Shown here: positions 35,985 through 38,847 of the stretch, piece after piece
Layout of the letters: every line of letters starts with the position of its first letter
Position numbering within the stretch: the stretch's first letter is position 1
Assembly: GCA_014801955.1 (NCBI GenBank)
Contig: JAAVDE010000012.1
Location: 168,889 to 232,888 of the forward strand
Direction of reading: 5' to 3'
From: Bacteroides sp.
GTDB lineage: Bacteria; Bacteroidota; Bacteroidia; Bacteroidales; Muribaculaceae
Length of the DNA stretch: 64,000 nucleotides
Program-made: the position numbers and the translations under genes
Notes under the pieces: model-generated
The model's input: the letters and a program-made list of their open reading frames with translations, nothing else
What the model was told of the DNA's origin: nothing
Database searches by the model: none

Positions 35985-36413
35985 ATGATTATCAGATGGT
36001 TAACTGAAAACATAGAGTTCCCCGACGTTATCTCCAAGGAGATTGTTGAGCCCTGGCTGGCAAAAGTTGCCGAAGCCCACGGCAAAATTCCGGGAACGCT
36101 GACCTACATCCTGACCGACGATGAAGGAATCCTTCGGGTGAACCGCAAATTCCTCGACCACGATTACTTCACCGACATCATTACCTTCGACTACTCCAAG
36201 CGCGGAATGGTCAGCGGCGACATCTACATTTCGCTCGAAACCGTTGCGACCAATGCCGAGCAGTTCGGCCAGAATCCGATTCGCGAGCTGCACCGCGTTT
36301 TGGCCCACGGCCTGCTCCACCTCTGCGGAATCAACGACAAAGGTCCCGGCGAACGCGAAATAATGGAGCAACACGAAGACCGGGCTCTTGAACTACTCTA
36401 CGAAATGCTATGA
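35985..36413 (+). CDS. ybeY: Endoribonuclease YbeY
   Basis: FLDHDYFTDIITFDYSKRGMVSGDIYISLE...HRVLAHGLLHLCGINDKGPGEREIMEQHEDRAL (HxxxHxxxxxH-type zinc motif). Confidence 0.95.
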   Translation: MIIRWLTENIEFPDVISKEIVEPWLAKVAEAHGKIPGTLTYILTDDEGILRVNRKFLDHDYFTDIITFDYSKRGMVSGDIYISLETVATNAEQFGQNPIRELHRVLAHGLLHLCGINDKGPGEREIMEQHEDRALELLYEML

Positions 36414-38263
36414 TATTCGACTTCGACGTTATTGTTGTCGGCGCAGGCCATGCCGGCTGCGAGGCCGCGCGCTCGGCGGCTCTTTGCGGCTGCCGCACGC
36501 TGCTGATAACGATGGATCTCAACAAAATCGCGCAAATGAGCTGCAATCCCGCTGTCGGCGGCATTGCCAAAGGCCAGATTGTTCGCGAAATCGACGCCCT
36601 GGGCGGCGCAATGGGCCTGGTAACCGACGCCTCGTCGCTGCAGTTCCGAATGCTCAACCGCTCGAAAGGCCCCGCAATGTGGAGCCCGCGCGCGCAGGCC
36701 GACCGCATGGCGTTCAGCGCCGCATGGCGCCGCGAGCTGGAAATGACGCCCAACCTGTTCATGTGGCAGGACTCCGCGACGGGGCTCATCGTTGAAAAAG
36801 GCGCCGTTTGCGGCGTCAGGACGGCCTGGGGCGTGAATTTCACCGCAAAAGCCGTTGTTCTGACCAACGGAACGTTTCTCAACGGCCTGATGCACGTTGG
36901 CCGCACGCAGATTCGCGGCGGACGAGTGTCGGAACCCCACTCCACCGGCCTGACCGAACAGCTCGTCAGCCTCGGCTTCGAGGCCGACCGCATGAAAACC
37001 GGCACGCCCGTGCGTCTTGATTCGCGAACGATCGACTTCACGCTCTGCGAGCGCCAGGACGGCGACGAAACCGACGATAAATTCTCCTTCCTCCCCGAAA
37101 GCCGCCGGATTCTGCGCCAGCTCCCCTGCTGGGCAACCAAAACCAACGCAGAAACCCACGAGGTTCTGCGCCGCGGACTGCCCGATTCGCCGCTCTACAA
37201 CGGCCAGATCCAAAGCATCGGCCCGCGCTACTGCCCCAGCATCGAGACCAAAATCGTTACTTTCGCCGACAAAGACGAACACCACCTCTTCCTCGAGCCG
37301 GAAGGCGAGAACTCAACGGAGTATTATCTCAACGGCTTCTCGTCGTCGCTTCCGTTCGACATTCAGATGCGCGCGCTGCAAACCATTCCGGCGCTGCGCA
37401 ACGTTCAGATTCTACGCCCCGGCTACGCGATTGAATATGACTTCTTCCCCCCGACCCAGCTCTTCCACTCGCTGGAAACCCGCCTTATCCGAAACCTCTT
37501 TTTCGCCGGCCAAATCAACGGCACGACCGGCTACGAAGAAGCGGCCGGCCAGGGGCTGATTGCGGGCATCAACGCAGCCGCGGCGGTTAAAGGAACCGAG
37601 CCGCTAATTCTCGGACGCGACCGCGCCTACATCGGCGTGCTCATCGACGACCTGGTAACGAAAGGGGTCGACGAACCCTACCGCATGTTCACCTCGCGCG
37701 CCGAATATCGCATTCTGCTGCGCCAGGACGACGCCGACAGCCGCCTGACCCCGCTCGGCCACTCCGTTGGCCTCGCCTCCGACCGCCGGCTCGATATTTT
37801 GCGCAACAAAGAGCGCCTCATCGACGACCTCACCGGCGAGCTGCGCTCAACGTCGCTGCGCCCCGAAGCGGTCAATCCCCTGCTCGGCGAAATCGGTTCC
37901 GCACCCGCCCGCCAGTCGACCAAAGCCGCCGACATTCTACTTCGTCCTGGCATGACCCTCGAACTGATGAGCCGCATCCTGCCCGGCATTCTCAACTTCC
38001 CCGACGACGTTCGCCAGGCAGTTGAAATCCGCCTCAAATATGCCGGCTACATCGACCGCGAGCGCCAGCTGGCCGAGCGAATGACCCGCATTGACCACAT
38101 CACCCTGGGCGACAAACTCGACTACTCGAAAATCGCCGCACTCTCGACCGAGGCCCGCCAGAAGCTCGCCTCAATCCGCCCCGCAACGGTTGGCCACGCC
38201 AGCCGAATCCCCGGCGTTTCGCCCGCCGACATCAACGTGTTGCTGCTGATGCTCGGTAAATAA
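36410..38263 (+). CDS. mnmG: tRNA uridine-5-carboxymethylaminomethyl(34) synthesis enzyme MnmG
   Basis: FDVIVVGAGHAGCEAARSAALCGCRTLLITMDLNKIAQMSCNPAVGGIAKGQIVREIDALGGAMG. Confidence 0.97.
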   Translation: MIFDFDVIVVGAGHAGCEAARSAALCGCRTLLITMDLNKIAQMSCNPAVGGIAKGQIVREIDALGGAMGLVTDASSLQFRMLNRSKGPAMWSPRAQADRMAFSAAWRRELEMTPNLFMWQDSATGLIVEKGAVCGVRTAWGVNFTAKAVVLTNGTFLNGLMHVGRTQIRGGRVSEPHSTGLTEQLVSLGFEADRMKTGTPVRLDSRTIDFTLCERQDGDETDDKFSFLPESRRILRQLPCWATKTNAETHEVLRRGLPDSPLYNGQIQSIGPRYCPSIETKIVTFADKDEHHLFLEPEGENSTEYYLNGFSSSLPFDIQMRALQTIPALRNVQILRPGYAIEYDFFPPTQLFHSLETRLIRNLFFAGQINGTTGYEEAAGQGLIAGINAAAAVKGTEPLILGRDRAYIGVLIDDLVTKGVDEPYRMFTSRAEYRILLRQDDADSRLTPLGHSVGLASDRRLDILRNKERLIDDLTGELRSTSLRPEAVNPLLGEIGSAPARQSTKAADILLRPGMTLELMSRILPGILNFPDDVRQAVEIRLKYAGYIDRERQLAERMTRIDHITLGDKLDYSKIAALSTEARQKLASIRPATVGHASRIPGVSPADINVLLLMLGK

Positions 38264-38264
38264 T

Positions 38265-38280
38265 TGTTTCACGTGAAACA
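38265..38280. promoter_or_regulatory. Candidate parS centromere-like site (ParB/Spo0J binding)
   Basis: Perfect 16-bp palindrome TGTTTCACGTGAAACA, identical to the widely conserved chromosomal parS consensus; intergenic between mnmG and apt. Confidence 0.8.
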
Positions 38281-38328
38281 TATGCAACTTTCGAAAATTC
38301 AAATTATTAACTTATAACTTTTCACATC

Positions 38329-38847
38329 ATGGAATACATTAAACGACACATCCGCGACGTTCAAGACTTCCCGACAAAGGGAGTACTCTTCAAAGACCTC
38401 ACAACGGCATTCAAAGACCCCCGCGCGCTCCACATCATCGGCTGGGACCTCGGCCAGCTCTATCGCGACAAGGGCGTAACCAAGGTTGTCGGCATCGAAA
38501 GCCGCGGCTTCATCGGCGGCTCGATTCTGGCCTTTGAACTCGGCGCAGGCTTCGTGCCCTGCCGCAAACCGGGCAAACTCCCCGCCGACACCCTCAAGGC
38601 TACCTACGACAAGGAATATGGCACCGACACCATCGAGGTTCACGCCGACGCAATCACCCCCGACGACATTGTTGTTATCCACGACGACGTGCTCGCCACC
38701 GGTGGCACCATGGCCGCAGCCTATAACCTCATCAAGTCGATGAACCCGAAAAAAATCTATATCAACTTCATCATCGAGCTAACCGCGCTCAACGGCCGCG
38801 ACCGCCTGCCCGCCGACGCCGAAGTAACCTCGCTGATTACCTATTAA
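38329..38847 (+). CDS. apt: Adenine phosphoribosyltransferase
   Basis: IRDVQDFPTKGVLFKDLTTAFKDPRALHII; VVGIESRGFIGGSILAFELGAGFVPCRKPGKLP; VIHDDVLATGGTMAAA. Confidence 0.96.
   Translation: MEYIKRHIRDVQDFPTKGVLFKDLTTAFKDPRALHIIGWDLGQLYRDKGVTKVVGIESRGFIGGSILAFELGAGFVPCRKPGKLPADTLKATYDKEYGTDTIEVHADAITPDDIVVIHDDVLATGGTMAAAYNLIKSMNPKKIYINFIIELTALNGRDRLPADAEVTSLITY

What the first reader, a model, noticed from the sequence alone, without database searches (positions are those of the whole stretch)
38265..38280. Perfect parS-like palindrome TGTTTCACGTGAAACA between mnmG and apt
Seen in sequence: exact 16-bp palindrome in the 65-bp intergenic gap after mnmG. Established knowledge: it matches the chromosomal parS consensus bound by ParB/Spo0J, and mnmG (gidA) is often near the origin/par region in bacteria. 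Inference: a chromosome-segregation centromere site, so this window may be origin-proximal. I saw no second copy in the window, and parA/parB are not here.
Basis: partly seen in the sequence, partly recalled or inferred. Interest (0 to 1): 0.7.

Follow-up and report, generated by a model that had tools for sequence, protein, structure and literature searches.

The report
Chromosomal parS centromere site beside mnmG
The 16-letter palindrome is almost certainly the DNA handle (parS) by which this gut bacterium's ParB protein pulls new chromosome copies apart; it sits next to the same gene, mnmG, in most Bacteroidota sampled, far from the ParA/ParB genes and often far from dnaA, so it is a known kind of site in an unusually faithful place.

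Summary
The interpretation (parS) is strongly supported. The genome encodes adjacent ParA and ParB on another contig, and this ParB carries the two residues (R157, G185, equivalent to Caulobacter R173/G201) that a published study found invariant in ParB. The motif occurs in 115 of 119 genomes of the family (Muribaculaceae), usually once; the reversed control in 1. In 74 of 80 named Bacteroidales mnmG loci, parS lies within 250 bp of the mnmG stop, also where apt is gone; in a phylum sample of 30, 24 have it within 300 bp of one end of mnmG. Across family loci only the 16 bases are conserved. In two complete or near-complete relatives parS lies 14 and 43 kb from the origin-type GC-skew minimum, while dnaA and parAB lie 0.5-1.1 Mb away. 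So 'origin-proximal' is supported by relatives but not shown in this fragmented genome, whose own skew is inconclusive. No full Smc condensin was found in 59 family genomes. It is a new member of a known kind; the added value is the mnmG anchoring. Binding was not tested.

The parts
38265..38280 (.). parS palindrome TGTTTCACGTGAAACA
   Evidence: exact sequence; unique in the genome at 0-1 mismatch; position next to mnmG conserved in family, order and phylum
36410..38263 (+). mnmG (gidA); its 3' end is the conserved neighbour of parS
   Evidence: TIGR00136, 797 bits, over cut-off
38329..38847 (+). apt, adenine phosphoribosyltransferase; downstream neighbour, dispensable for the association
   Evidence: NF002636, 203 bits; absent beside many Bacteroidales parS sites
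38264..38328 (.). 65-bp mnmG-apt gap holding parS; no terminator-like or sigma-70-like site found

Best explanation
The palindrome is the chromosomal parS (centromere) site of this Muribaculaceae bacterium, probably its only strong one. ParB, encoded on another contig, would load on it as a CTP-gated clamp, spread into the flanking mnmG/apt/uvrC DNA, and be moved by ParA so that newly copied origin regions separate. Shown here: sequence, uniqueness, conservation of position, presence of parA and parB, ParB specificity residues, closeness to the skew-inferred origin in two relatives. Inferred from the ParABS literature: binding, CTP gating, spreading and segregation. Because no full-length Smc was found in the family, the usual ParB task of loading Smc-ScpAB is either missing here or done with an unrecognised partner.
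For: Exact consensus, single copy in own genome. TGTTNCACGTGNAACA in 115 of 119 family genomes against 1 of 119 for the reversed control, one copy in 99 of them. Of 30 apt loci fetched without regard to parS, 28 have it upstream of apt by script, plus G032 by coordinates; the 30th is cut by a contig end. Bacteroidales: 74 of 80 mnmG loci with parS (0-1 mismatch) within -30..+250 of the stop, control 0. Phylum: 24 of 30 within 300 bp of either end of mnmG (L283, with a truncated flank, counted by hand from its coordinates). In 66 family loci positions 1-4, 6-11 and 13-16 are invariant and flanking columns hold 0-0.9 bit. Adjacent ParA-ParB in own genome with ParB_N, HTH_ParB and ParB_C domains. 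Own ParB has R157/F163/K168/G185, i.e. RXXG; PMC7383237 reports R173 and G201 invariant in ParB. Skew minimum at 1,377,001 with parS at 1,420,462 in G092, and at 2,946,001 with parS at 2,931,714 in G057.
Against: No binding data. Own genome is about 84% complete, so further sites could be missing. Skew around the window is inconclusive. Only two genomes were used for the origin test. DnaA-box clusters were not found near the skew minima. parAB and dnaA are unlinked to the site.
Confidence: 0.95

Rival explanations
1. The palindrome is an operator for a transcription factor controlling apt (or the 3' end of mnmG), its likeness to parS being incidental.
For: It ends 48 bp before the apt start codon, an operator-like position.
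Against: The site stays at the mnmG 3' end where apt is absent (Parabacteroides, Alistipes, Porphyromonas, Prolixibacteraceae loci), in other Bacteroidota it lies 5' of mnmG or on both sides, and it is usually a single site per genome, unlike a regulon operator.
Confidence: 0.02
2. It is an RNA element: a terminator or hairpin at the end of the mnmG transcript.
For: A palindrome directly after a stop codon could form a stem in RNA.
Against: No terminator-like site found; RNA fold no better than shuffles, z -0.12; the palindrome is uninterrupted with no loop. Read on the mnmG strand, the common variant TGTTCCACGTGAAACA would break a stem pair (C against A), yet sequence at the other 14 positions is invariant, which fits a DNA-binding site and not a stem.
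Confidence: 0.01
3. It is a former parS site, conserved in sequence but no longer the working centromere, with the true one elsewhere in the missing 16% of the genome.
For: Own assembly is incomplete; parAB and dnaA lie elsewhere.
Against: Genomes of the family that are 99% complete also mostly have this as the only exact site, and the site stays invariant while flanks diverge, so selection still acts on it.
Confidence: 0.02

Closest known systems
Chromosomal parS of the ParABS (Spo0J/Soj) system, e.g. Bacillus subtilis and Caulobacter
   Same: Same 16-bp consensus, adjacent parA-parB in the genome, ParB with N-terminal, HTH and C-terminal domains and RXXG specificity residues, origin-near position in two complete relatives.
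   Different: Usually a single site; parAB is not next to it (about 0.3 Mb or more away in the complete genomes measured here); dnaA also far away in many Bacteroidota; no Smc above cut-off in 59 family genomes.
parS sites mapped by consensus in Bacteroides caecimuris and Muribaculum intestinale (PMC10197239)
   Same: Same order and family; parS at the origin inferred from skew and read coverage, dnaA not always at the origin, no condensin homologue found.
   Different: That paper, in the passages read, does not name the mnmG neighbour or its conservation; the present work adds the phylum-wide mnmG anchoring.
Noc-binding site NBS (Firmicutes nucleoid occlusion)
   Same: 16-bp palindrome bound by a ParB paralogue.
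   Different: The sequence here has the parS bases, and the ParB has R and G, not Q and R, at the two switching positions.

Membership tests
chromosomal parS / ParABS | 16-bp palindrome matching TGTTNCACGTGNAACA | tested here: met
   perfect match at 38265-38280
chromosomal parS / ParABS | genome encodes a chromosomal ParB with parS-type specificity residues | tested here: met
   one TIGR00180 hit, 183 bits; R157 and G185 compared with PMC7383237
chromosomal parS / ParABS | adjacent ParA ATPase | tested here: met
   L174:14343-15116 directly before parB; AAA_31 229.6 bits
chromosomal parS / ParABS | site lies near the replication origin | tested here: inconclusive
   met in two relatives, 14 and 43 kb from the skew minimum; own contig skew unclear
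chromosomal parS / ParABS | site conserved in related genomes beyond neutral expectation | tested here: met
chromosomal parS / ParABS | ParB binds the site and spreads; needed for segregation | not testable with these tools
   needs ChIP-seq, EMSA or genetics
parS as Smc-ScpAB loading site | genome encodes Smc | tested here: not met
   TIGR02168 over cut-off in 0 of 59 family genomes, own included; best 40 bits, partial; MukB/MksB, ScpA, ScpB not searched
Noc/NBS | NBS-type site and Q/R specificity residues | tested here: not met
   site is CACGTG-centred; ParB has R and G

The most novel reading that the evidence does not exclude
In Bacteroidota the chromosomal centromere has been inherited for the age of the phylum as an mnmG-parS pair, independent of parAB and dnaA, a remnant of the mnmG-rsmG-parA-parB origin cluster of other bacteria; this pair marks the origin better than dnaA does, and in families without a recognisable Smc, such as this one, ParB at this site segregates origins without the canonical condensin.
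Probability: 0.45. Interest if true: 0.5.

Novelty: new member of a known kind. Interest (0 to 1): 0.36.

Why it matters
It gives a sequence-only candidate marker of the origin region in fragmented Bacteroidota genomes (look for parS at the end of mnmG), where dnaA misleads. It also makes a testable case of ParABS working from what is usually a single site, remote from its own genes, in cells without a recognisable Smc.

Tried and rejected
Skew on the own contig: too confounded by gene-strand bias to place the origin. DnaA-box clusters (TTATNCACA) near the skew minima: none found, at most two per 600 bp in any sampled stretch. Rfam over the window: nothing. Terminator/promoter/RNA-fold readings of the palindrome: rejected. 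Apt operator: rejected because the site persists without apt. Literature for an mnmG-parS link in Bacteroidota: none found in the open library; subscription papers, including the 2007 parS survey by Livny and colleagues, could not be read.

Full report
Observation. It is the only match with up to 3 mismatches in the window and the only one with 0-1 mismatch in the own assembly of 2,135,973 bases, 45 contigs, 84.5% complete. The window is contig C12:168889-232888.

The organism. One genome of the window's family (G082, locus L035) is 100% identical over 3016 bases to a named Muribaculaceae MAG (L184), so the window is from a Muribaculaceae bacterium (Bacteroidales); the species is not known to me.

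The protein partners. The own genome has one ParB (TIGR00180, 183 bits) on contig C22, directly behind a ParA ATPase and before an unnamed gene and a MltD-like lytic transglycosylase. The ParB has ParB_N, HTH_ParB and ParB_C domains and a GERRFRA motif in its N-terminal domain (from general knowledge this belongs to the CTP-binding signature). Alignment to solved ParB and Noc structures and a motif search give R157, F163, K168, G185 at the four positions that Jalal et al. (PMC7383237) showed to decide parS versus NBS; they report the R and G positions as invariant in ParB and replaced by Q and R in Noc. Eleven of twelve other family ParBs read the same RXXG; the twelfth was missed by the search pattern.

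Conservation in the family. TGTTNCACGTGNAACA occurs in 115 of 119 genomes and the reversed control in 1; 99 genomes have exactly one site, 15 have two, one has three, four have none. Loci fetched by the apt protein, so without regard to parS, have the site upstream of apt in 28 of 30 by script; one more (G032) has it by coordinates (C55:27818 against apt 27880), and in the last (G007) the contig breaks there. Second sites, where present, often lie within about 2.5 kb, near uvrC. In 66 distinct family loci, 14 of the 16 positions are fully invariant, positions 5 and 12 vary in the usual parS way (T/C and A/G), and flanking columns hold 0-0.9 bit. Many of those 66 loci were fetched by the motif, so they show flank divergence, not frequency.

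Conservation in the order and phylum. Of 80 named Bacteroidales loci fetched by MnmG, 59 have an exact and 74 an exact or 1-mismatch parS within -30..+250 of the mnmG stop, median 8 bp; the reversed control gives 0. Many of these lack apt there, so mnmG, not apt, is the anchor. Of 30 phylum-wide mnmG loci (own included), 18 have it on the 3' side and 24 within 300 bp of either side, several on both sides (locus L283, with a truncated flank, was counted by hand).

Origin. In G092 (one contig, 3,306,969 bases) the skew is mostly negative from 275 to 1375 kb and mostly positive from 1375 to 2720 kb, and third-position and intergenic values switch with it. The cumulative minimum of the finely sampled stretch is at 1,377,001 and parS at 1,420,462; dnaA is at 781 kb and parB at 454 kb. 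In G057 (main contig 3,306,869 bases) the minimum is at 2,946,001 and parS at 2,931,714; dnaA is at 683 kb and parB at 2,357 kb. A random site would lie within 50 kb of the minimum in both genomes with a probability of about 0.001 (own arithmetic). The two genomes are of one genus, so they are not fully independent. In other complete genomes, mnmG and dnaA are 8-26 kb apart in G182, G132 and G160, but far apart in B. fragilis Q1F2 (mnmG 4.60 Mb, dnaA 3.64 Mb, parB 0.18 Mb of 5.20 Mb) and others; parB was at least about 0.3 Mb from mnmG in all single-contig ones. Skew could not be sampled there. In the own contig the skew right of parS is negative to the contig end and near zero to the left, which fits an origin to the right but does not show it.

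Published work. A Hi-C study of mouse gut bacteria (PMC10197239) found parS clusters at the inferred origin in all 12 strains, Bacteroides caecimuris and Muribaculum intestinale among them, noted that dnaA is not a reliable origin marker, and found no condensin in these two. Its origin calls used parS itself to choose between skew shifts, so they are only partly independent. My Smc search agrees on condensin: 0 of 59 family genomes over the cut-off, with ten of fourteen control genomes over it. The mnmG link is not mentioned in the passages I read and I found no paper on it, but the library lacks most subscription journals.

Verdict. The site is parS with near certainty by sequence and comparative evidence; its role is inferred. 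It is a new member of a known kind. The useful addition is that in Bacteroidota parS is tied to mnmG rather than to parAB or dnaA. A plausible history (inference) is that the mnmG-rsmG-parA-parB cluster known near the origin in other phyla came apart, leaving parS with mnmG.

Noticed in passing
window 1-25000 versus 25000-64000: Gene orientation and raw GC skew change together near 25 kb (mainly minus-strand genes and positive skew to the left, plus-strand genes and negative skew to the right); coding strands are C-rich at third positions, so raw skew here mostly follows gene strand.
   Followed up: partly
L174:14343-18399 (own contig C22): parA-parB is followed by an unnamed gene and a MltD-like lytic transglycosylase, linking segregation and cell-wall genes.
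   Followed up: no
family genomes, e.g. G055, G057, G090, G037, G043: Several genomes carry extra long ParB-like proteins (frames of about 560-690 aa) beside the chromosomal ParB, probably from mobile elements.
   Followed up: no
G092:C1: Twelve weak DnaA-like hits of nearly the same score in 262-aa frames, presumably IstB-type ATPases of one insertion sequence in many copies.
   Followed up: no
L214, L208, L239: In a few Bacteroidales the parS motif overlaps the last codons or stop codon of mnmG itself, so the site may constrain the protein's C-terminus.
   Followed up: no
L247 (B. fragilis) and L217 (B. ihuae): Both have CGTTTCACGTGAAACA at mnmG and a second site TGTGTCACGTGAAACA about 9.4-9.9 kb away, the same paired variant in two species.
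   Followed up: no
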